Positions 2,131 through 45,013 of a stretch of DNA of 64,000 bases are shown here, in pieces. The DNA lies in NCBI RefSeq assembly GCF_031583025.1, contig NZ_CP134062.1, forward strand, positions 2,232,001-2,296,000, written 5' to 3'. This DNA is from Mycobacterium sp. Z3061. Lineage in GTDB: Bacteria > Actinomycetota > Actinomycetes > Mycobacteriales > Mycobacteriaceae. Under the pieces are notes generated by a model, which saw only the letters and a program-made list of their open reading frames with translations, ran no database searches and had not been told where the DNA came from. Positions within the stretch are counted from its first letter, which is position 1. Every line of letters begins with the position of its first letter. Both the position numbers and the translations under genes were made by a program.

Positions 2131-2137
2131 GATGATG

Positions 2138-11076: not shown

Positions 11077-11092
11077 CGTCGGAAATTCCCTT

Positions 11093-11914: not shown

Positions 11915-11929
11915 AGTCATCACCTGCTT

Positions 11930-11967: not shown

Positions 11968-11977
11968 TTGTCAAGGA

Positions 11978-12640: not shown

Positions 12641-12744
12641 TGGCGCGAGGTGGCGCGAGGCGGCGCGAGCAGACGCAAAATCGCACACTTCGGCACGAAA
12701 TAGTGCGATTTTGCGTCTGCTCGCGCCGTGTGGGCGCGTTACTC
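12641..12744. repeat. Palindromic element, copy B, in direct orientation to copy A
   Basis: It has about two GCGCGAGG units, then 24-bp perfect arms at 12663-12686 and 12703-12726 identical to the arms of copy A. The 16-base loop differs from that of copy A. The tail CGTGTGGGCGCGTTACTC runs to 12744 and contains the papA5 stop. The two copies lie 2142 bp apart and bracket exactly the three inserted genes. It sits between convergent padR and papA5, so it may also terminate both. Confidence 0.88.
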
Positions 12745-14007: not shown

Positions 14008-14811
14008 TCAGTGCGTGCTGGCTCGTCGGTAGCCGATGGCCATGGGGACGGCGCAGACGCCGGCGATTCCGGCGCTCCACAGCAGCGTCGCGATCATCGG
14101 CGCCAGCACCGGGCCGCCGGCCGACAGCCCGCGCATCGCCGTGATCGCGTAGCTCACCGGCTGGTGCGCGACGACGGGCCGGATCCACTCCGGGTACTGA
14201 TTCACCGGTAGCAGGCCGGTGGAGAAGAAGATCAACAGCAGCTGCCACAGCTCGACCGCCTCGACCACCAGGGTTTTGGACGTGAACAGCGCGATGGTGG
14301 TGGTGAGTGCGGCGAAGGCCATGCCGAGAATCACCGGGACGCCCAGCCACATCAGGGTGGCCAGCGCGCCGCCGCGGAAGCGGAAGCCCAGGGCCACGCC
14401 CGCGCCCAGCATCACGCCGGTGGTGACCAGAATCCGGATCGCCTCGGCGATGATCCGGGCCAACGGGCCAGAGGCCCGGTGCACCGGCATCACCCACAGC
14501 CGGGTCAGCAGGCCGCTCTGCTGCTCGCGCATCAGGTCGATCGCGACGAACGCCGAACCGCTCACCGCCCCACCCAGCGCCAGCAGCGGCACGATGCTGT
14601 ACAGCGCGCTGTCGTGGGTCATGGCGTAGATCAGATTGCCCAGCACGATGTAGAGCACCAGCATGAAAGCGACCGGCAGCACCAGCGCCTCCATCACGGT
14701 GACCAGGTCGCGTCCCCACCGGGTGAGGATGCGCTGGGTCTGCACCAGCGTCTGCGTCAGCAGCAGCCGTGCCGAGCCGTCCGGCGCCCGCAGCGCGGTG
14801 GTCGCGGTCAT
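14008..14811 (-). CDS. drrC: DrrC, ABC-2 type PDIM transport permease
   Basis: Integral membrane permease of 267 residues with about six helices (for example VMEALVLPVAFMLVLYIVLG and VPVILGMAFAALTTTIALF). With DrrA and DrrB it forms the ABC transporter needed for PDIM translocation. It ends CAVPMAIGYRRASTH, the C-terminus I remember for DrrC. ATG 14811 overlaps the drrB stop in an ATGA (14808-14811), which favours this start over the upstream frame extension to 14901. Confidence 0.94.
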   Translation of the reverse strand: MTATTALRAPDGSARLLLTQTLVQTQRILTRWGRDLVTVMEALVLPVAFMLVLYIVLGNLIYAMTHDSALYSIVPLLALGGAVSGSAFVAIDLMREQQSGLLTRLWVMPVHRASGPLARIIAEAIRILVTTGVMLGAGVALGFRFRGGALATLMWLGVPVILGMAFAALTTTIALFTSKTLVVEAVELWQLLLIFFSTGLLPVNQYPEWIRPVVAHQPVSYAITAMRGLSAGGPVLAPMIATLLWSAGIAGVCAVPMAIGYRRASTH

Positions 14812-15628
14812 GGGCGCCGGGACAGCACGAAGACCGACATGGGCACCAGGAACAACGCGAAACCGGCCAGCCACAACAGCGGCGGCGTCATCACCGACCA
14901 CGTCACCGGCACGGGGGATTTCACGGTGTCGCCGGCCAGCGCGCGCAGCGCGATCACCAACTGGGAGATCGGCTGGTTGCGCACGATGGGCTGAATCCAG
15001 TGCGGAAACATCTTGAGCGGTTGCAGGCCCACTGACAGCAGCCCGAAGATCAGGATCGGCATGGTCAGCAGGGGCAGCATCGCGTCGGGATTACGGCTGG
15101 CGGTGCCGATCAGGTCGGCGCCGAACGACAACAACACCCCGATCACGATCGCCAACGCGCAGAAGCCCGCGATGTACGGCGCGCCGTGATGGAACCGGAA
15201 CCCGATCACGTGCGCGGCGATCAGCGACACGACCAGGCCCACACAGCACCGGTACACGCTGGCCGACACGCGCGCCAGCACCGGCGTCAACGGCGCGATC
15301 GGCATGGACCGGAACCGCCGGTTGACCCCGTGCAGGGAATCGGTGGCGGCCCGGAACGCCGACGAGATGGCCGCAAAGGCGATGGCCTGCAACGTGACCA
15401 GCGGCGTGATGTACTGCCCCAGGTTGCTGGCGATGCCGCTGCCGGGTCCGCCCACGTAGTGATTCCACGGGATGGAGAACGGGACATAGAAGCCCACCGC
15501 GAAGGACAGCGAGGCACCGATCGCGGTGATCAGTTCGCCGTTGCGCAGGGTCGGTGCGATGAAGCGGGTGGTCAGTACCCACCACTGCTGCAGCATCGAC
15601 GGCTGCGACCCGCTCACCACGGCCGTGC

Positions 15629-15632
<4 letters not shown>
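14808..15632 (-). CDS. drrB: DrrB, ABC-2 type PDIM transport permease
   Basis: Permease of 274 residues. Helices are obvious (AIGASLSFAVGFYVPFSIPW, CALAIVIGVLLSFGADLIG, LLTMPILIFGLLSVGL), with the conserved stretches ASNLGQYITPLVTLQAIAF and FRAATDSLHGVNRRFRSMP typical of DrrB. It pairs with DrrC and the DrrA ATPase. The GTG start at 15632 overlaps the drrA stop as GTGA and the stop overlaps drrC as ATGA, so all three are translationally coupled. Confidence 0.94.
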
Positions 15633-16633
<1,001 letters not shown>

Positions 16634-16643
16634 TCCAGCCTCC

Positions 16644-19600
16644 TCAGTCAAGGCTCGACAGGTCCACCAGGGCGCCCGCCTCGGCCACGCCGGTCATCTC
16701 GCTGTCCAGCTGCTCGGCGGCGATACCCTCCTGGATCAGCTCGCTCAGTGCCTGCGGGAAGGTCCGCGCCAGCGCCTCCACCGTCTCCGCCGCGATCCGC
16801 CGGGAGTCGTACCACCAATCGAGATGTGTTGAGCCGGCGAACCGGTACACGCGCACCTCGAGAGCGTGGCCGAGCCCCGGGATGGTCTCGCGCACCGGCA
16901 TGGTCACGTCGGGCTCGAACTGCACCGGCGCGTCGACGGGCGGGAGCTCGGGAATCGTACCGGCGTAGCGGAAGTGGATGTCCGGCGTGCGCTGAGCGCC
17001 GAAGGTGCGTCCGGTCGGCGCGTAGAGGTAACGCAGCAGCCCGTACCCGATGCCGTAGTGCGGCACGGCTTTCAGCGTGTTGTGCACGGCGTCGAGTTGC
17101 TCGACCACCGCCGAGCCTTCGCCGCCGGCGCAGGCCAGCGGCACCGGGTAATAGGTCGTGCACCAACCGGCGGTGCGGCGCAGGTCGACGTCCGGGCGCA
17201 GCACCGAGCGACCTTCGCCCTCGAGTTCGACGGCGACCACCCCGTCGCCGACCGTCCGGGCGATGGTGCGGCCCAGCGCGGCGAGCAGAATCTCCTGAAT
17301 CGAGCGGCGGAACCGGCGCCGGGCGTCGTCGAGTTCGGAGGTCTGCCCGACGTCGAGGGTGCCCGACAGCTTGACCAGGTCGGCGCCGGTCGGCGGCGTC
17401 GCCGCCGGCTCCGCCAGCCAGCGGGTCACCTTGGCGGCGTTGTCGATCCAGAAGTGCCGGGTGTCCAGCGCCGCCGGATGCGTGGCGAGCGCTGCCATCC
17501 GCTGCGACCATTCCCGCCAGCCGGTGGCCGGCGGTTCCAGCGTGATCTCACCACCCGCCAGATGCTTCCCGAAGGCGATGACGATATCGCTGCCCAGGAT
17601 CTGATGTGAGGCGGTGTCGGCGACCATGGCGTGCACGCCCAGTCCCAGGTAGTTCGGACCGCCGGAGGGGTCGGTGATGTGCACCGCGATCAGCGGTACG
17701 GTCGAATCGCTCTGCTCGGCAATCACTTCGGCCAGCGTTGCGCAGGGCTCGCTGCCGTCGGTCACCGACCGGGTCACCAGGGCCGTGAAGTCCACGGGCG
17801 GGCCGATGTGCTGTTCCCATACGCCGTCGTTGTCGACCAACTGCAGCCGCAGTGCGTCGTGGTGGTTGGACACCGCGGTCAGCACCGTCCGGATGTCGTC
17901 GGGGCTGACCTTCGGGTCCAGTCGCAGCATCAGCGGCACCCGCCAGCGCCCACCGTCATGCAGTCCGTGTTCGAGGAAGTACGTGGTGTTCGGCAGTATC
18001 GCTGGGTTCGATTGCGGCTCAGGCGGTTTAGCCAGGCCGCTGGCGGCGAACGCGGCATCCACGGCGGCGGTGAGCGACGCCAGCGTGGGGTGCTCGTAGA
18101 GATCCTGCGGGGTGATGCTCAAGCCTTCGTTCGAGGCGGTCATCGCGATGCTGATCGCCATCAGCGAATCACCGCCGAGGTCGAAGAAATTGGCGTTCGG
18201 GTCGATCGAGGGCACCCCGAGGCACTGCTGCCACACACGTTGCAGGGTGATTGCGGTCTGCGTCGGGCCGCCCGCCTCGACGGGCGCTTCGGTGTGGGGG
18301 CCGACCGCAGCACCGTTGACGGGTGCCGGCTCCCAGGCGGTGCGCTGCGGCTCGATCCAATGCCGTTGACGCGCAAACGGATAGCCGGGCAGCGAGACCA
18401 GCCGCGGCGGCACCGGGTGCCTGGGGGACCAGTCGACGTCCACGCCGGCCGACCACAGTTCGCCGAGTGCGCGCAGGAAGGTGTCGCGGTCGTCGGCCTG
18501 CTGGATGGGGTGCCGCATCAGCCGGACGGAGCGGTTGCCGCCCGACCACCTCGGGTGCCGGATCGCCGAACCCGTGAGGCTGCCGCCGGGGCCGACTTCG
18601 ACCAGAATCCGGTTCGGGACGGACAGCACCGTGTCCAGCTCGTCGGCGAACCGGATGGTGGAACTGATCTGGCGGGTCCAGGTGTCCGGGTCGGTGGCCT
18701 GCTCGTCGGTCAGCCAGGTCCCGGTGAGGTTGCTCAGCAGCCGGGTGTCGGGGGTTTTCAGCTGCCGCTGGGACAGGAATTCACGGAATTCAGCGAGCAT
18801 GCCGTCCATTTGGCTGGTGTGGAAGGCGTGGGTGGCGCGCACCCGTCGCACCGGAACACCGTGTTCGCCCAGTCGCGCGGTGAAGGCGCGGATCGCGTCC
18901 TTGGGCCCGGCGACCACACAGTTGCCCGGGTCGTTGACCGCGGACACCTCGGCCCCCGGTACCAGGTGCTGGGCGACATCGGCCGGGCTGAGCGCGACCG
19001 CGACCATGGCGCCGGGGGGAGATTCGTGCATCAGCCGGGCGCGCAGTGACACCGTCTTGACCGCGGTTTGCAGATCGAAGACGCCGGCCAGCGTGGCCGC
19101 GATGTATTCGCCGGTGCTGTATCCGATATAGGAGCCGGCCCGCACGCCGTAGCTTTCGACCAGCTTGGCCAGCGCGTATTCGACGGTGAACAGTGCGGGC
19201 TGGGATCGGTCGATGCGCTCCAGATCGGCTGCGGTGCCGGCAAATATCGTCTCGCGCAGATCCAGGCCCAGTTCCGCCTGGAAGGCCGTGGCGCAGGCGT
19301 CGAAGTGTTCGGCGAAGACGGGTTCGGTGTCGTACAGCCCCTTGGCCATGCCGGGGTGCTGGGCGCCCTGGCCGGGGAACAGGAAGACGACCTGGTCGGT
19401 GGTTGCGCTGTCGGCGGGGGACTCGCCGACGAAGACGTTGTCGTGCTCGGCGGCGCGCAGCAGGGTGACCGCCTGGGCCCGGTCGGCCGCGACGGCGGCC
19501 ATGGTGACGTGGTGTCTGCGGCGGCCGGCCAGCGTGTGGGCGACATTCGCCATCCCCGGGGCCAGGGCCGGGGCGTTCGGGCGCTCCAGCGCGGTGGCCA

Positions 19601-21010
19601 GGGCCGTCCGCGCCTCGCCGAGGGCTTCGGCGGTGCGCGCCGAGAGCAGCAACACCTGCGGCCCTTCGGGCGCGGCCTGCACCGCGACCTCCGGCGCCTC
19701 CTCGACCACCAGGTGGGCGTTGGTGCCGCCGATGCCGAACGAGCTCACCCCGGCCCGGCGGATACCGTCGGATTCCCAAGCGCCGTAGCGGCTTTGCACG
19801 GTGAACGGGGTCTCGTCGAGGTGCAGTTCCGGGTTGGGGCTGGTGTAGTGCAGGGTCGCCGGGATCGCTTTGTTCTTCAGGCACAGGATGGTCTTGATCA
19901 GCGCCGCGATTCCGGCGGCGACTTCGAGGTGGCCGATGTTGGACTTGACCGAGCCGATCACACACGGTGCCGACCGCGGTTCCTCGGACGCCTCGAATGC
20001 GGTCCGCAATCCCTGGATTTCAATGGGGTCGCCCAACGGCGTTCCGGTGCCATGGGTTTCGACGTAGCTGATGGTCGAGGCGTCGACATCGGAGACGGCG
20101 TGGGCCTCGGCGATGCAGTCGGCCTGAGCCGACGCGCTGGGTGCCGCGAAGCCCATTTTCGCCGAGCCGTCGTTGTTGATCGCCGATCCGCGGATGACGG
20201 CGTGGATCCGGTCGCCGGCGTCGAGGGCGGCCTGCAGGGGCCTGAGCACCACCAGGCCTACACCGCTGCCGAAGACGGTGCCGTCGGCGCGCACGTCGAA
20301 GGGCCGGCAGTGCCCGACCGCGGAGAGCATCTGGCCCGGCGAATGCCAGTACCCGACATGGTGTGGGACGCAGAGGGATACGCCACCGGCCAGCGCCATG
20401 TCGCATTCACCGGACAGCAGGCTCATGCAGGCCAGGTGCACCGCCACCAGCGACGACGAGCACGCCGTCTGCACCGCGAGGCTGGGCCCGCGCAGGTTGA
20501 ACTGGTGCGAGATCCGGGTGGCCAGAAAGTCCTTGTCGTTCTGCAGGAACATGCTGAGCTGGTCCCAGTTCAGGCCCTCGGCCAGCACGGCGTTCGGGTC
20601 CTGGTGCGACAGCAGGTTGTGCAGCAGATAGCCACTGGGAGAGCTGGTCCCGTACACGCCGATCGACCCGTCATAGCGGGCCGGATCGACGCCGGCGTCT
20701 TCGAGTGCGTGCCAGGCGCACTGCAGGAACAACCGGTGCTGCGGGTCCAGGGACCGGGCGACCAGTGGCGGGAAGCCGAAGAAGTCGGCGTCGAACTCGT
20801 CGACGCCGTCGACGATCGGCGCGCGCCGGACGTAAGACGGGTTCGCCAATGCCTTGTCGCTGATGCCGGCGTCGCGCAGTTGCTGCTCGGAGAGGGTGAC
20901 GATGGATTCCTTGCCGCGCCGCAGGTTGTCCCAGAACGCCGACACGTTATTGGCGCCCGGGAACCGGCCGGCCATGCCGACCACCGCGATCGCGTTGTCG
21001 GGACTGCTCA

Positions 21011-21011
<1 letters not shown>
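16644..21011 (-). CDS. ppsE: PpsE, last PKS module of phthiocerol synthesis
   Basis: Modular PKS of 1455 residues that adds the final unit of the phthiocerol chain. Domain order is KS (C184, [12 protein letters not shown]), AT (S632 in GYSTGEYIAATLAG; THAFHTSQMD downstream), ACP (S949 in LGGDSLMAISIA) and a C-terminal condensation-like domain (HHDALRLQLV near residue 1045, then ELEGEGRSVLRPDVDLRR). No DH, ER or KR is present, so the beta-keto group is kept; in M. tuberculosis separate enzymes then reduce and methylate it. PpsE interacts with TesA for release and with MmpL7 for export (known). The start is GTG 21011 (SSPDNAIAVVGMAGRFPG), which shares its G with the ppsD stop (TAGTG). The frame extension to 21788 is spurious. 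Confidence 0.95.
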
Positions 21012-26378
<5,367 letters not shown>

Positions 26379-26379
<1 letters not shown>

Positions 26380-29300
26380 TACTCCGCGCCTTCCGTCGCT
26401 GCTTCCAGCTCACTGGCCGCAACCAGGTCAGACAGCAAATCCAGTTCCTCGTCCGATAATTCGGGCTCTTCCTCGGCGCTCCCGGCGTCGGTGGCTTCCG
26501 GCTCGTAACCCAGCCGCTCGCACAGGGCGCCGGCCAGGTCGGTGATGGTCGGGTAGGCCCAGACCAGGGCCACCGGCAGGGTGGTGCCCAGGCTCGCCTC
26601 CAGCCGGTTGCGCAGTTCCAGGGCCATCAGGGAGTCCAGGCCCAGCGACTCCATCGGCCGGTCGTGGTCGATCGGGTCGGTCGAGCGCAGCACCGCCCGG
26701 ATCTCGTCGGCGATCGCCGTCGCGAGCCGGGCCGGGCGCTCGGCGGGATCGGTCGCGTCCAGTTCGGCGCGGACGCGGCCACCGCCGGTGCGCTGCTCGA
26801 GGGTGATCGACTCCTGCAGGGTGGCGAACAGTGAGGATCCCGCTGCGGCGGGGAAAGATTGGAACCACTGCCGCGCGTCGAGCGCGAACACACCGGTGCG
26901 GGCCCGGTCCGCCGACACTACCAGCTCCATCGCGGCCAGCCCCTGCGCCGGGGTGATCATCGAGACGCCCAGGTCGGCGAAGAACTGAGCCCGGCCCACT
27001 TCGGCCCAAGGGCCCCAGTTGATTCCGGTCGCGGGCAGCCCCAACGACCGGCGGTAGGCGACCAGTCCGTCGATCCAGGAGTTGGCTGAGGCGTAGGAGC
27101 CCTGACCGGGCGCGCCGACCAGTGCGGAGACCGACGAGAACGACACCCACCAGTCCAGGTCGGCATGCTTGGTCGCTTCGTGCAGCCACCAGCCGCCGGC
27201 CACCTTGGGGGCGAACACCCGCGCCGACGCCGAGTCGGAGATGTTGAGCACGATCTCGTCGGCCAGCACCATCGCGCTGTGCACCACGCCGGCCAGCCGG
27301 AAGCCCGCGTCGCCGACCGCGGCCACCAGGCGCCGCGAGGTTTCGGGGTCGGCGAGGTCGCCGGTCACCACCTCGACGCGGGCGCCCGCGCCGTTGAGGT
27401 CGTCGATCGCGGCCTGCACGTCGGCGCCGGGTGCCGAACGACCGTTCAGCACAACGAGTCCCGCACCCTGTTCGGCGAGCCAGCGGGCGGTGACGAAGCC
27501 GAGACCGCCCAAGCCGCCGACGACCACATACCCGCCCTCCGGCCGGACCAGGGGCTGGGCCGGCCGTGGCGCGAGGGCCGGGATGCTGCCGGTCTGGGGT
27601 ATCGAGATGGCGACCCGGCCGGCGTGGTCGCCCGACCTCAGCAGTCGCAGTGCCTGGTCCGCGTGATCGAGGGCAAACTGGGTGACCGGTAGCGGCGCCA
27701 ATCGGCCTGTGACGGCATGCCGCAGGATCTCTTCGAGGTAGGCGCGGTAGCGCGCGGGCTGCGGGCGCACGACCGCGAAGGAGGCGTCGCGGGCCAGCCC
27801 GCTCAGATCGATCGCGGTGTCGGTCCGGCCCAGCTGGACGAACCGACCACCCGGGGCGAGCAGCCGCATGCCCGCCCGAATCGACTCTCCGGGAAGCGAA
27901 TTGAGAACGATGTCCACAGATTCCTCGGGCGCGGCGGTGAACACCTGGGCGCCCATCATCGTGGCGATGGCGGCGGCCGCCAGGTCCACACCGTCACCGC
28001 TGCGGTGAATCAGCACCTTCTCGCCGGCCGCAACCTGCCCGACCGTGCACAGCGCATGCCACGCCGTGAGATAGGGCAGTCCGAAGCCGGCCGCCTGCGC
28101 ATCCGACAGAACCTCGGGCACGGGTACGACGAGGTCGGCGCCGGTGGTCAGGTAGGAGCCGGTGGCGGCGGATCCGAAAGCGATGACGCGCCGGCCGGTC
28201 TCCGGCCCGCGAACCACCACCCCGAGGCATTCGGCGACGTCGCCGCCGTCGTTCAGCAGAGCGGTGAGAACGCGGACCTCGACCTGGCCGTCGGCCGGTT
28301 CGGTGCGCCCGGCCGCGTGCGCCTGCAGGTCGCCGTCGAGCGTGAACGCGCCGCCGGTATCGAGGTCGACTGTGGTGAAACGACTTTCCGGGATCAGCTC
28401 ACCGGATAGCAGTGGCGTGGGCACCAGGCGGCTCACATACCGTTGCCCGGCGCGCAGCGCGACCTCGTCCTGATCGGAGCCCGCCAGCAGTTCGTCGACC
28501 AGACCCGCGAGCGGTTGCATGCCGTCCGGGCCGACGTCGACCAACGTGGTCTTCAGCTCGGGGTGCTCGAAATTCAGCACGCGGGCGATGCCGCGAAGTT
28601 GCGTCTGTGCCAGGGTGACCGACTCGGTGGGGTCCAGTTGTTGCGCCCCGCGCGTCACGATCCACAACCGGGGGCTGTTGCGGGCGCCCACGCGCGATAC
28701 CGTCCGGACGATGTCTGCGACGCGCAGGGTGCGGGTGCGTGCCAGGTCGAGCTGGGTCTGGATGGGCTCGGCTTCGTCGGACGCGCGGGGCGGGCAGACC
28801 AGTACGATGCCGTCCCACGTGGTGTCGCGCTGACCGATCGCGGCCCGCATGGCTTCGTCATCGAAAACCACGTCGCACCGGCCGATTCGCGCGGCGAGTT
28901 CGGCGCGCAGCCCGGCGGTCAGGTCGTCGGAGCCGACCAGCAACAGCGCCGCGGGCGCATCGGAGTGATCTTCCAGCGCCGCGGGCCGCCATTCCACCGA
29001 GAACAGGCGATTGCCGAGTTCCCTTGCACCGCTGGGTGATCGCAGCACCGCCATCTCGACGCGGTCGATCTCCAGGACCGGGCGTCCGTCTTCGTCGAGC
29101 AACAGGACCCGGCCGGCCAACCGGTCCGGCGTGTCGGTCGGGGCGAGGGATGCGACCGCGGTCGCGCCGTTCACCACGTCGCCGTGCACCCGGACCCCGG
29201 CGAAACCCACCGGAAGCACGATGGCCTGCTGCGCACCGGTGGTCAGCTCGGTGGCGGGCGCGGTGGCGCCGAGCGCTTGCATCGCGATGTCCATCATCAC

Positions 29301-32300
29301 CGGATGCAGCAGAAACTTTCGGGCGCCGGCCTTCGCCCCCGCCGGCAATTGCACCCGCGCGTGAGCGGCGCCGGACGGCGATACCGACAATCCGACGATG
29401 CCCTGGAACGCGGGACCGTGCTGTTGCCCGGCGGCACGCAGCCGTTGATACAGCTCCCCGGGATCGAGCGCGGTCGCGCCTTCGGCGGATTCCGGCGCCT
29501 CCGGCTGTGCCGGCTCTGCGGGTGCCAACGTGGCGGAGGCGTGTTTGATCCATCCGGAACTGGCGCTGCGAGTGCGGATTTCGACCCGGCATGACTGGTC
29601 GTCGCCGGTGAGCGTGGTGGCGATCACCGTGCTGTCGGTGACGTGCATCAGCTGATCGAGGGTGAGTTCGCGGATCATCCAGGACGCGCCGGCGAAGGTG
29701 TCGGTCGCCGCGGCCAGCGCGATGTCCGCATACGCGGCCCCGGGAAGCACGCACACGTCGTCCACGCGGTGGTCGCCCAGCCAGAGCAGATCGGGGCTGA
29801 TCGCGCACTCCCACACGCGGGTGCCGTTGGTGGGGTCGTGCACGCCGACGCCAAGTAGGGGATGGCCGTGGGTACCGGTGGTCGAGCCGGCGTCGATCCA
29901 GTGCCGGGTGTGCTGCCAGGGCGTGCCCGGCAGCAGCGGGTGCGGTTCGGGCGGATGCGGTGTGTCGGGCGGGCGGGTGCCGTGCGTGGCGTTGAGGTTG
30001 CTGTGGAAAGTGACGGTGTCGTCGGTGTCGCGCTGCAGGGTGCCCAACACGCGCGCGCCCGCTTCGCCCAGGGTGTCGGTGATGGCGTAGGTGAGCAGCG
30101 GGTGCGGGCTGACTTCGACGAAGGTGTGCTGGTGCTGCGCGGCCAGGCTGATGGCCTGGTGAAACCGAACCGGGTTGCGCAGGTTGGCGGCCCAGTAGTC
30201 GGCGTCCAGCAGCGCCGGCGTCGGTCCCTGGACGGCGGTCGTCAGCATCGGGATCACCGGCGCTTTGGGTGCCAGACCGGCCAGCGCGCAACGTAATTCG
30301 GGCAGTATCGGGTCGATGATGGGGTGGTGGGAGGCGACGTCGACGTCGATGCGCCGCGCCAGCAGGTCCTTGGCCGCGACCGCGGCGATCACCGCATCGA
30401 CCTGATCCGGGGGTCCGGCGATCACCGACTGGCGCGGTGAGGCGTGCACCGCCAGCGTCAGCGCCGGATGGTCGGCGATCGCGGCCGCGGTGTCGGACGC
30501 GTCGAGTTCCAGCAGCGCCATCGCGCCCTGTCCGGCCAGTGCCGCCATCAGCCGCGAGCGGGTCGCGATCACCTTCAGCCCATCGGTGGGGGAGAGCGCG
30601 CCGGCCACCACGGCCGCCGACACCTCGCCCATCGAGTGCCCGATCACCGCGTCGGGTTTCACCCCGTAGTGCCGCCACAGCGCGGTGAGCGCGAGCTGAA
30701 TGCCGACCAGCACCGGCTGGATGTTCTCGATGCCCACCACTTCGCGGCTGCCGGCCAGGGTCTGCTCCAGCGAAAAACCAACCTGAGCAAGGAAATCCGG
30801 CTCCAGGTCGGCGACGGCGGCGGCGAATGCGGGCTCGTCGGCCAGCAGTTGGCGGCCCATGCCGATCCACTGCGAACCCTGACCCGAGTAGACGAACACG
30901 GTGCCCGGCCCGACGGACCCGTCATTGCAGACCGGGTCGGCCGCCAGTGCGCGCAATCCCGCGATGGCCTGCGCCCGGCCCCGGGCCACCACGGTGCCGA
31001 ATCTGACCTGCCGCGCGCGGTGGTGGTTGAGGGTGTGCGCGACGTCGGCCGGCGTCAAGTCAGCGCCCGGCCCTTCCCACCAGTCCGCCAGGGCCGCCGC
31101 AGTGGCCGCGACCCGCTGCGGGGTCTTGCCCGAGACCACCAGGGTGGAGACGGTCGGCTGCGGAGCAGGTTGCGGCGCAACCGAATCGGGAGCCTGCTCG
31201 AGCACCACATGCGCGTTGGTGCCACTGACACCGAACGAGGACACCCCGGCGCGGCGCGGGCGCTCGGTCCCCGGCCAGTCCATGCCCTCGGCGGCGATGG
31301 CGAGCCGGGACACCCCGTCGCTGACGTGCGGTGTCAGCTGCCGGAAGTTCAGGTGCCGCGGGATGTGCCGGTGGCCCAGTGCCAGCACGGTTTTGATGAA
31401 TCCGGCGATGCCGGCCGCCGCCTCGAGGTGGCCCAGGTTGGTTTTCACCGAGCCCAACACGAGCGGTTGCCTGCCGTCGCGGTCGCTGAAAACCTTGCTC
31501 AGCGAGTCGAGTTCGATCGGATCGCCCAGCGGCGTCCCGGTGCCGTGCGCCTCGACGTAGTCGATGTCGGCGGGCGCCAGCTTGGCCGAGGTCAGCGCTT
31601 TGCGCAGCAGCGCCTGCTGCGCGGGGCCGTTGGGCACCGTCACGCCGCTGCTGGCGCCGTCCTGGTTGACCGCCGAACCGCGGACCACGGCCAGGATCCG
31701 GTTGCCGTCACGCTGCGCGTCGGCCAGCCGTTTGAGCACCACCATCCCGGCGCCCTCGCTGCGCACGTATCCGTCGGCGGCGGCGTCGAAGGTCTTGCAC
31801 TGGCCCTCCGGGGACAACATGCCCCACCGTGAGCAGGCGATGCTCGGTCCCGGGCTCAGCAGCAGGTTGGTGCCGCCGACCAGCGCCATGTCGCTCTCCC
31901 GGGACCGCAGACTCTGCGACGCCAGGTGAATCGCCACCAGCGAGGACGAACAAGCGGTGTCGATGACCACCGCGGGACCCTGCGCGCCAAGGAAATACGC
32001 CAGCCGGCCGGCGGTGAAGTTCAGCGCGTTGCCGGTCGGGATGTAGGCGTCGAGGTCCTCGGGCCGCAACTGGCCGGCCAGGGTGACCATGTAGTCGTAC
32101 GAGGTGACGCCGACGAAGACGGACGTCTGGGTGCCCCGAATGGTGTGCGGCGCAACGCCGGAGTTCTCCAGCGACTCCCACGCCACTTCGAGGAGCAACC
32201 GCTGCTGCGGGTCCATCGCCGCGGCTTCGCGCGGGGAGATGGCGAAGAACTCGGCGTCGAACTCCTCCGGTTGCCAGCCGGTGAGGAAGCCGCCCTCGCG

Positions 32301-32588
32301 ACTGCAGATGGTGCCGGGCACGGTGTGGTCGTCGGTGTAGAACGCGTCGGCGTCCCAGCGCTCACCGGGCACCCGGATGATGCCACTGCGCCCGTCGCGC
32401 AACAGGTCCCAGAACTCGTCCGGGTTGCTCACACCGCCGGGGAAGCGGCAGCCGATGCCGATGACGGCGATCGGCTCACTGTTGGCCGCTTCGGCGATCT
32501 CGAGGCGTGCGGTGAGATCGTCGATCTTGCGCAGCGCCTCGGTGATGATCGCCCGGCGGTCCGGTGTGGGGGCACTCTGACTAGTCAC
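26379..32588 (-). CDS. ppsC: PpsC, PKS module with degenerate enoylreductase domain
   Basis: Modular PKS of 2069 residues, about 120 shorter than the roughly 2188 I remember for M. tuberculosis. Domains: N-terminal docking helix, KS (C213, [12 protein letters not shown]), AT (S652, [18 protein letters not shown] at 751-756), DH (H940, [15 protein letters not shown]), ER-like (about 1400-1667), KR ([16 protein letters not shown] near 1686) and ACP (S1986, [12 protein letters not shown]). In the ER-like domain the nucleotide-binding glycine motif is replaced by SGDGVD (1530-1535), and about 33 residues are missing between FTAAP and VDIVLNSL. The N-terminal half is also shortened. Normally PpsC performs full beta-carbon reduction. 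GTG 32588 is 5 bases after the ppsB stop. Frame is intact throughout. Confidence 0.95.
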
Positions 32589-32593
32589 AGCGG

Positions 32594-35500
32594 TCAGGTC
32601 AGCCTCTCCGAAAGTTGCCGCAGCAACTCGTCTTCGCTCAAGTCCTCGTAGTCGTCGGGTGGTTCCTCGGCCGCTTCCTCGGCCGCCAGGGCCAACTCGG
32701 CGAACTCCGGCAGTACGGTGGCCAGGTAATCGGTCAACCCGTACACCGTCGGATAGTCGAAAACCACCGAGGCGGGCAGGTATTCGCCGAGGGTGTCCGA
32801 CAGCGCCCGCTGCAGCGTCACGCTCATCAGCGAGTCCATGCCCAGCTGGAAGAATCCGGTGGACGGATCGAGGATCTCGGTGGCCGGCATACCCATCACC
32901 GTCGCGGCCAGCAGCCCGACCTGGTCGAGCAGCATGTCGTGGCGACGGTGCGCCTCGGCGGCCCGCAGGGCTTTGCGGAACTCGCTTTCCGGCAGCGCGA
33001 CGCCCGTCTGGGCCGGCAGCAGGTCATCGACGATGCGCAGCGATCCACGGGTGCGGAAGGCCGCCGCCAGCAACGGCCAGTCGGCGGCGACGATCGCGGT
33101 GCGCACCGCGGCCCCCGGGGCCAGCACGGAAGACAGTGCACCGATGGCGGTTTCGTCGTCCATCGGCGTCAGCCCGGATTCGGCGCTGACCTGGCTGGCG
33201 TCCCGCTGCGCGTCGGCCAGGGACTTCCACAGTCCCCAGTCGACGACGGTCGCCGGCAGGCCCATGGTGCGCCGCGCATAGGCGAAGGTGTCCAGGAAGG
33301 TGCTGGTCGCGGTGTAGTGGGCGAGCCACCGGGAACCGAGCAGGCCGGAGACGGAGGAGAACAGGACGAAGTGGCGCACCGGGCGGTCGGTCAGATGGCG
33401 CAGCGACAGCCGGTGCAGCAGCGCCGCGGCGTCGAGTTTGGGCCGGAACATGGCGGTGACGTCGTCCCCCGACATCTCACTGAGCAGTACCGGCCCACCG
33501 GCGAAGGCCGCGAGATAGATCCCTTCCAGCGGAGGTAGGTCGGCGCCGAACCGGTCGAACAACGCGCCCATCGCCGCGGGGTCGGTGGCGTCGGCGGCCA
33601 CCTCGACGAGATCTGTTCCGACGGTCCGTAATTCGTCGGCCAGCTGCTGCAGCGCGCCGGGTTTGCGGGCCACCGCGACGACGGTGGTGGCACCCATCCG
33701 GGCGAGCTGGCGGATCAGGTGCGGCCCGATGTTGCCGGTGGCGCCGACGACCAGCTGACTGGTGTCGCCGCCGAGCTGTGCCGCCGGGGTGCCCGCGTCC
33801 TGCGGTCGCCAGTGCAACCGGGGGACGTGGCGAACCCCTGACCGGTACACCACCTGGTCCTCACCGTCGGCGAGTTCGGCGGCAGCCAGCACGTGCTGTG
33901 CGGCGAGCTCCGCGGGCATCGTGTCGTCGACGTCGATCAGTCCGCCCCAGATGTCGGGATGCTCCAGCGCCAGCGAGCGTCCCAGGCCCCACAGCACCGC
34001 GTGAACGGGATTGGCCCGTTCGCCTTCGGCGACCGGCTGTGCGTTGCGGGTCATGACGAACAGTTTCTGCGGCGAACCGCCGGCGACCATGGCGGCGGCC
34101 AGCGCGCGGGCGGTGCCGAAAATTTGGTAGGCCGCGGCGATGTCGAACAACTCATCGGCCACCGGCGGTGCGTAGAGCACCTTGTCCACGCCGTCCAGCG
34201 GAATGTCAACGGCGCCTTCGGTAATCACCCGGGCGTCCGCGGCCTCGACCATGGCGTCGGCCAGTGCGGGTTCGGCCAGCACCAGCCAGGAGGCGCCGCC
34301 GGTGATCTCGGCGGCGGGCGCGGGGCTCACGGGCCAGTCCAGCTGGTGGATCCAGGCTTCGACGGTGCCGCCGGGAGGCGGAATCCGGTTGCGAATAGGA
34401 CGTTCCGGGCTTACCACGTCCATGTCGATCCAGTGGTGGGTGTGCTGCCACGGCGTGGTGGGTATGGCCGGGTGCGGCTCGGGCGGGTGCGGGGGATCCG
34501 CCGGGCGCACCGTGTAGAGGTTGGCGCGGAAGGTGACGGTGTCGTCGCTGTCGCGCTGCAGAGTGCCGACGGTGCGGTAGCCGGGTCCGGTCAGCGTCTC
34601 GGTGATGGCCTGGGTGAGCAGCGGGTGCGCGCTGATCTCGATAAAAGTGTGGTGCTGTTCGGCCGCTGCGGTGATGGCCTGCTGGAAGCGCACCGGGTTG
34701 CGCATGTTCACGGCCCAGTGCTCGGCATCGAATGCCGGCGCGCCGTGCAGGCTTTCGTAGGTGGTGGAGATGATGGTGATGTTCGGGCGGCGCGGCGCCA
34801 GGTCCGCCAGCTCCGCACGCATCGCCGGCTGCAGCGCGTCCATCGCCGGATTGTGCGGAGCCACTTCGATATTCACCCGGCCGGCGAAGCGGTTCCGGGC
34901 ACGCGCCGTGACGATCAGTTCGTCGATCTGTTCGGTGGGACCGGAGATCACCGTCTGGCTGGGTGAGTTGTAGATGCCCAGTGTCACCTGCGGGTAGTCG
35001 GCGATCAGCAACTCGGTGGCCTCGGCGTCGAGCCCCAGCATGGCCATCCCGCCCTGCCCGGACAGCGGCGCCATCAGCCGGGACCGGGTGGCGGTGACCC
35101 GCAGGCCCTCCGCGGGCGTGAGCGCGCCGGCCACCACCGCGGCCGCCACCTCACCCATCGAGTGCCCGATCACCAGGTCGGGCCGCACGCCGTGCGAGCG
35201 CCACAGTTCGGTCAACGCGAGTTGCATGCCGATCAGGCCCAGCTGGATCTGCTCGATGCCGACCAGTTCCCGGCCGTCGGCCAGCACGTCGCGCAGGGAG
35301 AAGCCGGCCTGCTGTACGAAGACCGGTTCCAACTCGGCCACCGCGTCCGCGAAAGCCGTTTCCTCAGCGAGCAATCGGCGACCCATGCCGGCCCACTGCG
35401 AGCCGCGCCCGGAGTACACGAACACCACGCCCGGTCCGGGCGAATCCTGGCAGGGCACAACGCCCTGGGCATGCTGTCCTGCCGCCAGGGCGCGCAAGCC

Positions 35501-37102
35501 GTGGACCGCCTGCTTACGGTCGCGGGCCACCACGGTCGCGACCTTGCCCTGCCGGGTGCGGTGGTGGTTGAGCGTATGGGCGACGTCGGCGACGGCAACC
35601 TCGGCGACCTCCAGCCAGTCGGCCAGCGCCCCGGCCGTGGCGGCCACCCGCTGCGGCGACTTGCCCGACACCAACAGCGTGGACACCCCGGCGTCCGACC
35701 CGGTCACCGGCGAGAGGTCGGGGCCCTGCTCGATGACGACGTGCGCGTTGGTGCCACCCAACCCGAACGAGGACACCGCCGCCCGGCGCGGACCCGCGGC
35801 GCCGGGCCAGAAGGTGTTCTCGGTCGGCACGAAAAATCGGGTCGCCGCGGCGTCGATCGCCGGATTCCACTGCGAGAAGTGCAGATTCGGTGGGATCTGG
35901 CCGTGCTGTACGGCGAGCACAGCCTTGATGAAACCGGCGATCCCGGCCGCGGCTTCGAGGTGACCGAGATTGGTCTTGACGGCGCCCAGCGCGCACGCGC
36001 CCTGGCTCTGATCCTTGACCTGGCCGTAAGTCGCTGCCAGCGCCTCGAATTCGATCGGGTCGCCGAGCACCGTTCCGGTGCCGTGCGCCTCGACGTAGTT
36101 GACGCTCTCGGGCGCCACATCGCTGGACCGCAGCGCATCCGCGATCACATCGCACTGCGCGGCCGTGTTGGGTGCGGTGACACCGTTCGAGCGGCCATCC
36201 TGGTTGACAGCGGAGCCGCGGACCACCGCGAGTACCCGGTCGCCGTCGCGCACCGCGTCGGTCAGCCGCTTGAGCACCACCACGCCGGCGCCTTCGCCGC
36301 GCACGAAACCGTCGGCGGCCGCATCGAAGCTGGCACAGCGGCCCTGAGGGGACAGCAATCCCCATGCCGAGATCGCGATCTGGGTTTCCGGGCGCAGCGT
36401 GACGCTCACACCGCCGGCCAGCGCCACATCGGTCTCCCGCAGTCGCAGGCTCTGGCAGGCCAGATGCACCGCCACCAGCGAGGACGAGCACGCCGTGTCC
36501 ACCGCCACCGCGGGGCCGCGCAGCCCCAGCAGGTACGAGATGCGGCCCACGGTGATGCTGTGCGCATTCCCGGTTCCGGTGTAGGCGTCCACCGTGTCGG
36601 GGTTGGCGGCCAGCATGGACTGGTACTCGTTGAAGTACACGCCCATCATGACCCCGGCGCGGGTGCCGGACAGCGAATCCGTCGGTATCCCGGCGTGTTC
36701 GAGAGCTTCCCAGGCCACTTCCAGCAGCATCCGCTGCTGGGGATCCATCGCCGCGGCCTCGCGTGGCGTGATGCCGAAGAACTCCGCGTCGAAGCCGGCG
36801 ATGTCGGGTACGAAGCCGCCCCACTTGGTGGTCATGTGCCCCGGCGTCAACGGGTCGGGGTCGTAGAACGCGTCGGCGTCCCAGCGGTCGGCGGGCACCG
36901 GCGAGATCGCGTTGCGCCCCTGCACCAACAGGTCCCAGAAGCTGTCCGGCCCCACGACGTCACCGGGGAACCGGCAGCCGATGCCGACCACCGCGATCGG
37001 CTCGGCCACCGCGATCCGGGAGATCTTCTCGAACTCGTTCGACAGGGCGGCGCGCTGCTGCGCGCTCATACCGGAGATCCGGCTGAAAGCCGTTCGCATC
37101 AC
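32594..37102 (-). CDS. ppsB: PpsB, second PKS module of phthiocerol synthesis
   Basis: Modular PKS of 1502 residues that adds a malonyl unit and reduces it to the second hydroxyl of the phthiocerol diol. Domains: short N-terminal docking segment, KS (C205, [12 protein letters not shown]), AT (S648, [12 protein letters not shown], with VAPHNPAMD), KR ([38 protein letters not shown] with the catalytic Tyr) and ACP (S1424, [12 protein letters not shown]). There is no DH or ER. The C-terminus is acidic ([19 protein letters not shown]), typical of docking segments that hand over to the next module. The ATG at 37102 overlaps the ppsA stop as ATGA. Confidence 0.96.
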
Positions 37103-40100
37103 GAAGGCCTTTCGGCCTCGGACGACGTAGACTCGATGCGGTCGAAAAGGCTGTCCAACACACTGCCGGCCGACGCGGAAAGCGCCGCCATCTCGTCCTC
37201 GCCCGAATCCTGCTCGGGAGCAACCCGATTGGCCAGGTAGTTCGCCAGCGCCGCCACGGTCGGATGGTTGAACAGCATGGTCGCAGACAGTTCGATGCCC
37301 ACCAACTGCTCGGCCTCGCGCCGAATCGCCATCGCCATCAGCGAATTGAGCCCGAGTTCGGCGAACGGACGGTCGCTGTCCAGGTCGGATTCGGGCAACC
37401 GGAGCTCGCGGGCGATGATGCCGCGCAGCCCGCTCTCGAACTCGTGGCGTATCTCCGGGGCCGAGAGCCCCGACCAGTCGCGGGCCGGGATCAGGTAGCT
37501 GTCCTCGATGGCCGACCCGTCCGCGGTCGAGGGCACCGGCAGCACGACCGCCTGCGCGACGTCATAGCCGTCGATGTGCTCCCACGCGGTGAACGCCTCC
37601 TCCGGCGTGATGTCGCGGGACCCCAGGCGGGCCAGTTCGTCGCTGACGATCCGCGCGTCCGCGGCGAACCCGAGCCCGCGCCAGGCCACCCAGTCCAGAC
37701 TCACCGTGTGGCAACCCTGTTGGTGCCGTGACCGTGCCAATGCGTCCAGGTAGGCGTTCGCCGCGGCGTAGGAGCCTTGCCCGGGGATTCCGAATATCGT
37801 TGCGGCCGATGAGGTCAGGAAGAAAAAGTCGACGCTGCCGGGCGGGAAGGCGTGGTGCAGCACCTGGCTGCCACCGATCTTGGACCACGCCACCTCGCGC
37901 AGGGCGTCACCGGTCATGGTGGTCACCAGTTGGTCGTTGGTGACACCCGCCGCGTGGATGATCCCGCGGATCGGTGCGGCGCCGTCGGTGTCCCGCCGTT
38001 GCAGCAGGGCACGCAACTGGTCACCGCAGCCGATGTCCAGGGTGACGGCTTCGATTGCGACGCCGCGCATTTCCAGGGCGCGGATCGCGTCGATCTTGTG
38101 CCGCAGTCCCGCGTCCAGGGTGTCCAGTTCCCAGTCCCGTCTCGGCGGCAACGGGGTACGGCCGGTCAACACCAGCCGCCGGGCGCCGCGGTCGGCCAGC
38201 CAGCCCGCCATCAGCAGGCCGAGCGCGCCCATCCCTCCGGTGATCAGGTACGCCGCATCGGGCCTGCACCGCACCGGCTTGCGCACCGGTTCGCCGCGCA
38301 ACGCCGCCAGTGCGGGCGCCAGGACGGTGTTGTCCCGCAGCACCAGGACGGATTTGCTCGGACGCTGGATCAGGTCAGCGAGCGCAGAGTCGTCGGGCAC
38401 CACCGCCTCGGCCAGATCGACCAGTCCACCCCACAACTCGGGGTGCTCGGCCGCGATCACCCCGGCGAGGCCCCACAGGAAACTCTGACGCAACGCCGAC
38501 GGGCTCGCCGACTCGTACACCCCGCGCGTGACGATCCACAGCGTGACGGGGTCGGTGCGCTGCGCCAGCGTGCGGACCGCGGCGCTGACTTCCGCGCACA
38601 CCCGGACCGCGAAGTCGACGTCGGTCTCGGCGGCGTCGGTCTGGGATTCCGCGACATACAGCACGTACCGCGCGTCGGCGACGCCGCCCGGCCCGAAACC
38701 GTACTGCGCCAAGCCGTCCCGAAGAGCGCCCGCGTCGCCGAGGACCGCGAGGGTTCCGGGACCCAGCGCCTCGGTCGGATCAACGCGCGGCTGCCAGTCC
38801 AGCGTGTGCGCGAACGTCCGTGCGTCGGCATTCTCGGTGGCCGGCGTGGCGGCGAAGTCCAGCGCCCGATAACGCAGCGACTGCACTGACAGGAAAGGCG
38901 TTTCGCCGTGCAACCCGGCGGTGATGTCGACCGTGATTCCCTCGGCGTCGCGGCCGGTGTGGGTGAGCAGCACTGCGGCGCGAGTCTCGGAGTCGTTGCC
39001 GCGCAGCCAAACTCGTTCGATACTCGCCGGAACGTACAGGCGGGCGTCGTCGACCTCGGACAGCGCGCCGACGATCACGGTGGCGTCCAACAGCGGCCCG
39101 GTGGAACCGTCCGGCAGAGCGTCCGGTAGTTGGATCGCGGCCCGCACGCCGTTCGCGGTGTTCTCCCAGGCGTCGAGGGTCCACTTGAACGGCAGCCCGT
39201 CCACACCGCGCAGCGCGAGTTGTTCGGTGATGTCGGGCAGGTCGTCATCGAGGAGGCGTTGGGGCCGCGGCGCGACAACCTGTGCCGGCTCCGGCACCGC
39301 AGCCGACAGCCGTGCCGTCACATGACGTGTCCAGCGGTCGGTGTCGGCGGGGCGCGAGGCCAGGCTGATCGACCGGTCGTCGGCCACCACCTGGATAAGC
39401 CGCGGCTGATCGGCGAAGACGGGCTGGTCGAATTGCACCGCGGACAGCGCCGGGTACCCCAGTTCGTCTGCCGCGCAGAGCAGTGTGCGCAGGACGATCG
39501 AGGCCGGAACCACCTCGACACCGTGGAACCGGTGCCGGCCGCGGTACGGCTTGGCCTCGGGGGCCAGGCGGGCTTGCCACAGGTGCGACGGCGGGCCACC
39601 GGACACGGCCGTGACCGTGCTGTGCCGGCCGAGCAGCGTTCCGGGCGACGGCGCCGTGATCACCGAGCCGGCGGCACGTCTGGGGTCGATCCAGTGCCGG
39701 GAATGCTGCCACGGCGTGCTGGGCAGCGGCGGGTGCGGTTCTGCCGGGTGCGGAGTGTGCGGTGGGTGGGCGGTGTGCGCCGTGTTGACGTTGGTGCGGA
39801 AGGTGATGGTGTCGTCGGTGTCGCGCTGCAGCGTGCCGATGCTGGTGTACCGGGTGCCGTGCTGAGCGCTGTGCAGGGTGTCGATGACCGCATGGGTGAG
39901 CAGCGGGTGGGCGCTGACCTCGATGAAGGTGTGATGCTGCTCGCCGGCGCGCGTGATGCCCTGCTGGAAATGCACCGGGTTGCGCATGTTGAGGGCCCAG
40001 TGCTCGGCGTCGAAAAGGGCGGTGGTGTCGGTGCTTTCGTAGGTGGTGGAGATGATCGGGATGCTCGGGGTGCGCGGTTGCAGGTCGGCCAGTTCGGCGC

Positions 40101-44345: not shown

Positions 44346-45013
44346 CGCTTTACACTCCCGTTCGAACATTTGCCCTTGTGCACTATTGCGGCCTCGCTGC
44401 AATCCAAGCGAGGCCGCATAGCGGTGCGACCAGTGCCGTTGAGCGGCACGTACGAGTTGCGTAGCCCGAGCTGACGATTATTTGCTTCCCCACCGAAGCA
44501 CCACTGTGTGCCGCCGGATGATCGCCCCTGGACTAATTCCGCTCCCCTTACAACTAGTCGCGTGTGCAACGGTAATCATCTCTCGGTACGGGTGGGGGCA
44601 TTATCGGAAAATCCACACGCTACCCACAGGTCTCACAGAGGTCGCAGCTTGATAGCGCAGGTGGCTGATCTGCGCTGAATCTTATTCACTCCTGCCTGGC
44701 GCTGTGGTTGATGTGACATGTGATACGCGGGTGGCGGATGTTGGCGTCGCGAGACCTGAGCCTGAAGTTCCCGAGGCCACGCCCGCCCGTTTCTGGGACC
44801 AGCGTCCCGTTGTGACGAGAGTAACACCACTGGCGCAGGTGCCCGGCGACGTTTTTCCGATCCTTGCGCGCGGACGGTGGGTCCACCCGGTCGCCCATCC
44901 AGTACGCCGGGCCGATTCAATGATTGCTGCCACACCGTGCGGACTTTGCCGCCGGCGGACCGGCCGTGCCGGGACCAGCGTCAGCGCCGGTCGACGCCGG
45001 CAACCGGCGAAAC
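44346..45013. promoter_or_regulatory. 668-bp intergenic region upstream of the PDIM operon
   Basis: This gap separates the fadD26 start from the tesA stop and must contain the promoter of the whole fadD26-papA5 operon. Bases 44346-44700 are visibly less GC-rich than the genes around it. M. tuberculosis has a small annotated gene (Rv2929) at this place; short frames here (for example 44336-44569 minus) show no recognisable domain and I do not call them. No clear dyad or sigma motif was identified. Confidence 0.55.

What the first reader, a model, noticed from the sequence alone, without database searches (positions are those of the whole stretch)
27590..28380. PpsC enoylreductase domain is deleted in part and has lost its cofactor motif
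The ER-like segment of PpsC is about 263 residues against about 345 for the complete ER of Mas in the same window. The glycine motif (GGVG in Mas) is SGDGVD here. About 33 residues between FTAAP and VDIVLNSL, which carry the NADPH-phosphate-binding KR region in Mas, are missing, as are about 18 near the N-terminus and about 9 further on. All losses are in frame, and KR and ACP downstream are intact. As known from M. tuberculosis, PpsC carries out full reduction; here the module could leave an alkene unless a trans-acting ER (as Rv2953 does for PpsD) serves it. This predicts an unsaturated or trans-rescued phthiocerol variant.
Basis: partly seen in the sequence, partly recalled or inferred. Interest (0 to 1): 0.8.

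Follow-up and report, generated by a model that had tools for sequence, protein, structure and literature searches.

The report
Rewired wax-lipid synthase in Mycobacterium gordonae
In Mycobacterium gordonae and close relatives, one module of the assembly line for a waxy cell-wall lipid appears to have lost a working reductase and exchanged its building-block selector with the next module, which predicts an unsaturated lipid with a shifted methyl branch; in this strain a neighbouring gene looks broken, so the strain itself may not make it.

Summary
The ER region of ppsC (27546-28400, -) has 285 residues against 355-365 in 12 of 17 aligned relatives, has DGVD for GGVG, and lacks 33 residues of the NADPH subdomain, all in frame. 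It is no sequencing fault: 10 of 396 genus genomes carry this ER lineage, six in the short form, two of those labelled M. gordonae. Erosion is stepwise, and the remnant is 2-3 times less constrained than the rest of PpsC. In the same ten genomes the PpsC AT has the PpsD (methylmalonyl) signature; in the nine whose ppsD could be read, the PpsD AT has the malonyl signature. In the window it is an 833-bp near copy of the ppsA AT. The Rv2953-type trans ER is absent in ten of ten. Best reading: modules 3 and 4 were reprogrammed, so members with an intact locus should make a 6-methyl-4,6-dien-3-one analogue of phthiodiolone, not a trans-rescued phthiocerol. In this genome ppsD is split by a frame break, and the contig of a conspecific lacks about 17 kb of the locus, so this strain may make nothing. 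No chemistry was tested.

The parts
26379..32588 (-). ppsC, module 3 of the phthiocerol PKS (KS-AT-DH-ER remnant-KR-ACP), 2069 aa
27546..28400 (-). eroded ER domain, 285 aa, as compared with orthologues
   Evidence: AlphaFold2 model with residues 158-213 under pLDDT 50
27984..28001 (-). SGDGVD, in place of the glycine-rich NADPH motif (TGGVG in orthologues)
27915..27920 (-). junction where 33 residues of the cofactor subdomain are missing relative to orthologues (after FTAAPEES, before VDIVLNSL)
30069..30851 (-). segment of PpsC (residues about 580-840, AT) that is PpsD-like, not PpsC-like
   Evidence: mosaic profile; domain identities; trees
30309..30341 (-). DVASHHPIIDP, methylmalonyl-type AT signature in PpsC
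29019..29870 (-). PpsC DH domain, catalytic His and Asp motifs as in orthologues
27000..27536 (-). PpsC KR domain, Ser/Tyr/Asn motifs present
26523..26714 (-). PpsC ACP with LGLDSL
24511..26379 (-). ppsD, first frame (KS and linker), 622 aa; frame broken here
21011..24742 (-). ppsD, second frame (AT-DH-KR-ACP), 1243 aa; its AT is malonyl type (NIEVAPHNPAMD)
23871..24703 (-). 833-bp stretch of ppsD (AT) 98.2% identical to ppsA, read as a gene-conversion tract; the ppsD frame break lies near its upstream edge
39875..40707 (-). matching 833-bp stretch of ppsA (AT)
37099..42597 (-). ppsA
32594..37102 (-). ppsB
16644..21011 (-). ppsE (start codon at 21011 chosen as the one next to the ppsD stop; the open frame runs on upstream to 21788)
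42594..44402 (-). fatty-acid--AMP ligase, fadD26 by position
15629..16651 (-). drrA
14808..15632 (-). drrB
14008..14901 (-). drrC
12739..13986 (-). papA5, phthiocerol/phthiodiolone dimycocerosyl transferase (above the NCBIfam cut-off)
4108..10467 (+). mas, with a complete ER: internal comparison
2138..3886 (-). fadD28-like (1075.8 bits, just under the 1100 cut-off of the FadD28 model)
1..2184 (-). MmpL-family transporter, mmpL7 by position, cut by the window edge

Best explanation
On the stem of an M. gordonae-centred lineage, phthiocerol modules 3 (PpsC) and 4 (PpsD) were reprogrammed by recombination within the pps genes. PpsC received a PpsD-type (methylmalonyl) AT and PpsD received a PpsA/B-type (malonyl) AT. 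The PpsC ER was inactivated on the same stem, by loss of glycines of the cofactor motif and an N-terminal deletion, and then eroded by further in-frame deletions while the rest of the protein stayed under purifying selection. The Rv2953-type trans ER is gone, and the Rv2951c/Rv2952-type tailoring genes were not found in the four gordonae-type genomes searched. Predicted action in members with an intact locus (inferred): PpsA and PpsB set the 11- and 9-hydroxyls as usual; PpsC adds methylmalonyl and stops at the enoyl stage (methyl on C6, C6=C7); PpsD adds malonyl and also stops at the enoyl stage (no C4 methyl, C4=C5); PpsE leaves a C3 ketone. The diol is then a 6-methyl-4,6-dien-3-one-9,11-diol, esterified by PapA5. 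Shown here: ER erosion, AT exchange, gene absence, relaxed constraint. Inferred: loss of catalysis, AT specificity, product. The carbon numbering and module chemistry of phthiocerol are recalled.
For: ER: GGVG is DGVD (DGAD in G023) and the N-terminal loop is missing in 10 of 10 genomes of the lineage; 32-33 further residues are lost in 6 of 10, and 6 more in 3 of 10. dN/dS of the remnant against KS-AT-DH-KR-ACP: ratio 2.37, 3.04 and 2.04 in three lineage pairs (95% bootstrap limits 1.40-4.36 over the three), against 0.72, 0.96 and 0.85 in three pairs with a full ER (limits include 1). AT: the PpsC AT of the window is 71/77/70% identical to PpsD ATs of G029/G001/G026 and 60/62/64% to their PpsC ATs, while the other domains are closest to PpsC; the PpsD AT of G006 shows the reverse (76/76% to PpsC of G029/G001, 62/65% to their PpsD). 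The PpsD-like stretch of PpsC lies inside the AT. AU tests on 22 of the 48 AT rows reject all PpsC ATs as one clade (p 6.6e-66) and all PpsD ATs as one clade (p 2e-71), although the non-AT, non-ER parts of PpsC (14 rows) and of PpsD (12 rows) each form one group at 100/100. Signature: DVASHHPIIDP in 10 of 10 lineage PpsC, NIEVAPHNPAMD in 9 of 9 lineage PpsD read; tree placement was done for 6 of these PpsC and 5 of these PpsD. ppsA/ppsD tract of 833 bp at 98.2%. No Rv2953-type gene in 10 of 10; a tree parts 9 Rv2953-type from 16 other copies at 100/99, with the six lineage copies in it among the 16. DH and KR motifs intact in PpsC and in the PpsD of G006. Whole-gene dN/dS 0.11-0.19 in six lineage comparisons of ppsC, ppsD, mas and papA5.
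Against: No lipid of this lineage has been seen by me in print. One GC-MS study (PMC3798606, passages and part 1 of section 12) shows a M. gordonae pattern clearly unlike M. tuberculosis and does not name it among species with mycocerosates (M. marinum, which does have them, is also called clearly different there, so this is weak). In the window ppsD is frame-broken, and the CTRI contig lacks about 17 kb from ppsE to fadD28. AT specificity rests on sequence type; [quoted passage not shown] An unlinked reductase could still rescue. Absence of Rv2951c- and Rv2952-type genes is not peculiar to the lineage: G026, G001 and G036 also lack close matches. In the closest pair (window-CTRI) DH (0.56) exceeded ER (0.42) in dN/dS, on few changes. 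G095 and a second pps-like copy in G057 do not fit the two-type AT rule.
Confidence: 0.6

Rival explanations
1. The PpsC ER is dead, but an unlinked or cross-acting reductase saturates one or both bonds, so the product is saturated. Candidates: the Rv2449c-type paralogue, a stand-alone MDR about 52 kb from the ER, or an F420-type reductase.
For: Rv2953 is a trans ER in M. tuberculosis (title of Simeone 2007 seen in reference lists; the paper is not held). Cross-module enoyl reduction is reported for azalomycin F (PMC9899208, passages). An MDR frame with a GGVG motif lies at L065:14453-15385.
Against: No candidate follows the lineage. The paralogue (Rv2449c-type, name recalled) is found whole in 20 of 21 genomes with and without the change, G075 having only pieces with stops. 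The MDR is in 8 of 10 lineage genomes but also in G001 and G036, which keep the usual ER motif. The DDN-like gene of the window locus is also in the G229 locus, while G006, G047 and DSM 44160 had no match above 40%.
Confidence: 0.22
2. The locus is simply decaying: no lipid is made, and the ER erosion is one of many lesions.
For: ppsD frame break in the window; about 17 kb missing on the CTRI contig; ppsC broken into two frames in G023.
Against: ppsC and ppsD are single open frames in DSM 44160, G229, G204, G064, G114 and G217. dN/dS of ppsC, ppsD, mas and papA5 is 0.11-0.19. The ER stands out as relaxed. Decay is likely for the window strain itself and for CTRI, less so for the lineage.
Confidence: 0.15
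3. The remnant is still a working ER with an unusual cofactor site.
Against: The glycine motif and the 33-residue block are gone; part of the cofactor subdomain (158-213) is under pLDDT 50; the Lys of LGK is replaced in 6 of 6 short forms. That the Lys/Asp positions are catalytic is recalled, from no call.
Confidence: 0.02
4. Assembly or sequencing error in ppsC.
For: None found; the ppsD break shows that indel errors could exist in this assembly.
Against: The same form occurs in five other genomes with 71-94% identical ER.
Confidence: 0.01

Closest known systems
PpsC of the phthiocerol dimycocerosate (DIM/PDIM) synthase; PDB 4oki (named PpsC) and 1pqw cover its ER
   Same: Gene order ppsA-E, domain order, phylogeny of KS, DH, KR and ACP
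   Different: ER eroded; AT of PpsD type
PpsD module plus trans ER Rv2953
   Same: PpsC here has become architecturally PpsD-like: methylmalonyl-type AT, DH, KR, no working ER by sequence
   Different: The Rv2953-type gene is absent, and PpsD itself now has a malonyl-type AT
ER of Mas / MAS-like PKS (PDB 9d30, 5bp4, 9d2y)
   Different: Cofactor motif and part of the cofactor subdomain lost
Natural recombination and AT change between PKS modules (azalomycin F / GRINS, PMC9899208, passages; polyene ATs, PMC12843615, title and abstract start in a listing)
   Same: Module-to-module recombination or reprogramming of AT type
   Different: Here two ATs of one line are exchanged in type and an ER is lost in the recipient module, in a cell-wall lipid line of mycobacteria

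Membership tests
Working PKS enoylreductase (MDR) | MDR scaffold | tested here: met
Working PKS enoylreductase (MDR) | Glycine-rich NADPH motif GGVG | tested here: not met
   DGVD, or DGAD in G023, in 10 of 10 genomes of the lineage
Working PKS enoylreductase (MDR) | Cofactor subdomain complete, with the SDAKREML-type segment | tested here: not met
   33 residues absent; residues 158-213 of the model under pLDDT 50
Working PKS enoylreductase (MDR) | Lys of LGK and Asp of DLDLN (catalytic role recalled, from no call) | tested here: not met
   LGR and a 6-residue gap in the window
Working PKS enoylreductase (MDR) | Enoyl reduction | not testable with these tools
   needs an enzyme assay
PpsC orthologue | Position between ppsB and ppsD in a DIM-type locus | tested here: met
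PpsC orthologue | Non-AT, non-ER parts group with PpsC | tested here: met
   PpsC group 100/100
PpsC orthologue | PpsC-type (malonyl) AT | tested here: not met
PpsC orthologue | Complete ER | tested here: not met
   see the ER rows above; by sequence only
Methylmalonyl-type AT | Groups with PpsD ATs and bears VASH | tested here: met
Methylmalonyl-type AT | Loads methylmalonyl-CoA | not testable with these tools
   needs an enzyme assay
Classical DIM locus | ppsA-E, fadD26, drrABC, papA5, mas, fadD28, mmpL7, lppX | tested here: met
   (fadD26 and mmpL7 named by position); ppsD is frame-broken in the window
Classical DIM locus | Rv2953-type trans ER | tested here: not met
   absent in 10 of 10 lineage genomes; present in 9 of 11 other genomes examined, not in G095 and G036
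Classical DIM locus | Rv2951c- and Rv2952-type genes | tested here: not met
   G000, G006, G047 and DSM 44160: no Rv2951c-type match at E 1e-60, and for Rv2952 only 58-59% matches against 82-97% for orthologues in five other genomes. G023 and G064: one 59-60% Rv2951c match each (with one in-frame TAG) and one 60-62% Rv2952 match each. G026, G001 and G036, outside the lineage, also lack close matches

The most novel reading that the evidence does not exclude
M. gordonae-lineage members with an intact locus make a UV-absorbing wax not found in my literature searches: dimycocerosates of a 6-methyl-4,6-dien-3-one-9,11-diol, 4 H lighter than phthiodiolone dimycocerosate of the same carbon number, with the methyl branch moved from C4 to C6. 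This arose by natural exchange of AT types between two neighbouring modules together with ER loss.
Probability: 0.4. Interest if true: 0.78.

Novelty: new variant of a known kind. Interest (0 to 1): 0.62.

Why it matters
DIM lipids are a hallmark of pathogenic slow growers. A largely environmental lineage that keeps the machinery but has swapped extender type between two modules and lost both known enoyl-reduction routes would be a natural reprogramming experiment on this lipid. It captures in steps how a PKS domain is lost while the line stays open, and it gives a precise, testable structure. It also warns that ppsC presence does not mean classical DIM.

Tried and rejected
Rejected: (1) Sequencing error in ppsC; refuted by independent genomes. 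(2) The DDN-like gene 10597-11076 as rescue ER: not lineage-wide (also present in the G229 locus, which corrects my note). (3) The MDR at L065:14453-15385 as dedicated rescue: its distribution does not follow the lineage. (4) A dead DH that would make the ER irrelevant: DH motifs are as in orthologues. (5) A gained ER in PpsD: none found by Pfam in the window's PpsD. (6) Searches of the held library for such a lipid in M. gordonae found nothing on it; Rv2953, PpsC/AT and PKS-evolution searches gave background only. Subscription papers are mostly not held. PMC7563442, PMC7261415, PMC3594219, PMC6373159, PMC10921412, PMC2661021, PMC5302061 and PMC3293907 were looked at by passages only and gave background or nothing.

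Not done or partial: the control AlphaFold job on a full-length ER (A2) and the plain Foldseek search could not be started. Rv2951c and Rv2952 were searched in 6 of 10 lineage genomes (not in G204, G229, G114, G217). The PpsD AT of AWTP1-6 is cut by the contig end and was not read. G229, G204, G114 and G217 were placed by AT signature, not by tree. The AU tests used 22 of 48 AT rows; left out were all rows of G057, G075, G091, G095, G031 and G023, the second G057 copy, Mas, and some further rows. The 'rest' in the dN/dS bootstrap leaves out the psi-KR/linker region (0.22-0.32 in lineage pairs, 0.29-0.55 in full-ER pairs). Pairs in that test share sequences and are not independent. In one search the ppsE and tesA queries were cut out of frame by me and are not used. 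pks15/1 was not tested for absence.

Full report
What was checked. ppsC lies at 26379-32588 (-), 2069 aa, in one open frame, inside a DIM-type locus: fadD26, ppsA-E, drrABC, papA5, mas, fadD28, mmpL7 in the window and lppX just left of it (fadD26 and mmpL7 are named by position). The genome is one 6.79-Mb contig. Its nearest held relative, G006, is flagged as the same species; the contig that carries its ppsC has the length of NZ_LKTM01000090.1, labelled M. gordonae CTRI 14-8773. The species name is therefore by that label.

The observation. In the alignment with 17 relatives the ER region is 285 aa in the window, 285-286 in three, 336 and 338 in the intermediates G064 and G023, and 355-365 in twelve. 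The gaps, read from the alignment against G029, are about 7, 17, 6, 33, 4 and 6 residues. The glycine motif is SGDGVD. Everything is in frame, and the signature residues of KS, AT, DH, KR and ACP are as in orthologues.

Spread and order of the losses. Of 396 genus genomes, 10 match the ER region at E 1e-38 or better: six in one piece over the whole query (G000, G006, G047, G121, G204, G229) and four in two pieces (G023, G064, G114, G217). G121 and the genome of L040 (DSM 44160, also reached as G098) are taken as the same, since their matches have the same coordinates. In the alignment all ten have DGVD (DGAD in G023) for GGVG and lack the N-terminal FSDVLKAMG...GG stretch. Six lack 32-33 residues of the cofactor subdomain and the Lys of LGK. 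Three (window, CTRI, DSM 44160) also lack six residues at DIDLNL. The likely order is motif loss and N-terminal deletion first, larger deletions later, in a gene that stays open in nine of ten (G023 is broken into two frames).

Constraint. Codon-based dN/dS of the ER remnant is 0.34, 0.42 and 0.32 in three lineage pairs against 0.14-0.15 for KS-AT-DH-KR-ACP (ratios 2.37, 3.04, 2.04; bootstrap limits 1.40-4.36 over the three). In three pairs with a full ER it is 0.11-0.16 (ratios 0.72-0.96, limits include 1). The psi-KR/linker region was left out and is also loose in both sets. In the closest pair, window-CTRI, DH was looser than ER, on few changes. ppsC, ppsD, mas and papA5 as wholes show 0.11-0.19 in six comparisons.

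The AT exchange. The AT of the window's PpsC is closer to PpsD ATs (71, 77, 70% to G029, G001, G026) than to PpsC ATs (60, 62, 64%), while the other domains are closest to PpsC. The PpsD AT of G006 shows the reverse. Sliding identity puts the PpsD-like part of PpsC at residues about 580-840; in PpsD the change of type begins less sharply, from about residue 460, and ends near 860. Trees of the ATs and of the other domains contradict each other strongly; AU tests on 22 rows reject one clade for PpsC ATs (p 6.6e-66) and for PpsD ATs (p 2e-71). The signature DVASHHPIIDP or a near variant, found in 9 of 9 PpsD of the classical genomes, is in 10 of 10 lineage PpsC. NIEVAPHNPAMD or a near variant, found in 8 of 8 classical PpsC, is in 9 of 9 lineage PpsD read. 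G095 (PpsB, C and D all VASH-type) and a second pps-like copy in G057 lie outside this rule. That the line uses three malonyl and two methylmalonyl units is stated in PMC3089613 (passages); their assignment to PpsA-C and PpsD-E is recalled. In the window an 833-bp piece of ppsD (23871-24703) is 98.2% identical to ppsA (39875-40707), against 51-79% in the flanking 150-column windows. CTRI shows 369 identical bp between the same genes, cut by the locus edge. This is what recent gene conversion between pps ATs would leave.

Missing reductases. A second, Rv2953-type gene is in 9 of 11 other genomes examined and in none of 10 lineage genomes. A tree of the 25 copies parts 9 Rv2953-type from 16 others at 100/99; the six lineage copies in it, and the single copies of G095 and G036, fall among the 16. 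The four lineage copies found only were judged by identity (64-65%). In G074 and G029 fadD22-, Rv2951c-, Rv2952- and Rv2953-type genes stand near lppX, and among the held flanks of G000 and G064 no match to them was found (these names are recalled from the M. tuberculosis order). Genome-wide, Rv2951c-type is not found at E 1e-60 in G000, G006, G047 and DSM 44160, and only 58-59% Rv2952 matches are. G026, G001 and G036 also lack close matches, so this last loss is not peculiar to the lineage.

Mechanism. By the usual colinear rule, PpsC would now add methylmalonyl, reduce and dehydrate, and hand on an alpha-methyl enoyl chain. PpsD would add malonyl and also stop at the enoyl stage. PpsE leaves the C3 ketone, which stays if no Rv2951c-type enzyme acts. 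The result is a 6-methyl-4,6-dien-3-one. It is an inference from sequence.

Limits. In this genome ppsD is in two frames (KS part and AT-to-ACP part), matching residues 11-568 and 557-1799 of the open CTRI protein. The break falls near the upstream edge of the conversion tract. ppsD is open in the eight other lineage genomes whose ppsD was read whole. CTRI's contig joins ppsE directly to fadD28, without drrABC, papA5 and mas on it. So these two conspecifics may be recent non-producers, or their assemblies may be at fault. A GC-MS study shows a M. gordonae pattern clearly unlike M. tuberculosis (PMC3798606, part 1 of section 12). PMC5366915 (section 11) says the majority of the non-tuberculous species it sequenced lacked most DIM genes.

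Verdict. A real, shared, stepwise loss of the PpsC ER, part of a wider reprogramming of two modules. New variant of a known kind.

Noticed in passing
window 24511-26379 and 21011-24742: ppsD is split into two overlapping frames in this genome; open in the eight lineage relatives read whole. The break sits near the edge of the ppsA-like tract.
   Followed up: partly
L146 1-3633 (M. gordonae CTRI 14-8773): The contig joins ppsE (window-equivalent 19225) to fadD28 (window-equivalent 2489): about 17 kb with drrABC, papA5 and mas absent there, a real deletion or an assembly fault.
   Followed up: partly
L051 (G026), ppsB and ppsC: ppsB and ppsC share 2500 bp at 99.9% identity, apparently with an ER: PpsB may have become fully reducing, or the assembly is at fault.
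   Followed up: no
L058 (G057 contig 114): A second pps-like locus whose PpsC-like protein has a VASH-type AT and an altered ER motif (AAGDVG).
   Followed up: no
L055 (G095): PpsB, PpsC and PpsD ATs are all of VASH type, in one group with the G057 second copy; no Rv2953-type gene, though the ER motif is intact.
   Followed up: no
L045 (G023) and L054 (G031): ppsC is broken into separate frames in both, and ppsD too in G031.
   Followed up: no
window 10597-12184: A DDN-like (TIGR00026) gene and a gene weakly like mycothiol-dependent isomerases stand between papA5 and mas in this genome and in G229, not in G204 or G064.
   Followed up: partly
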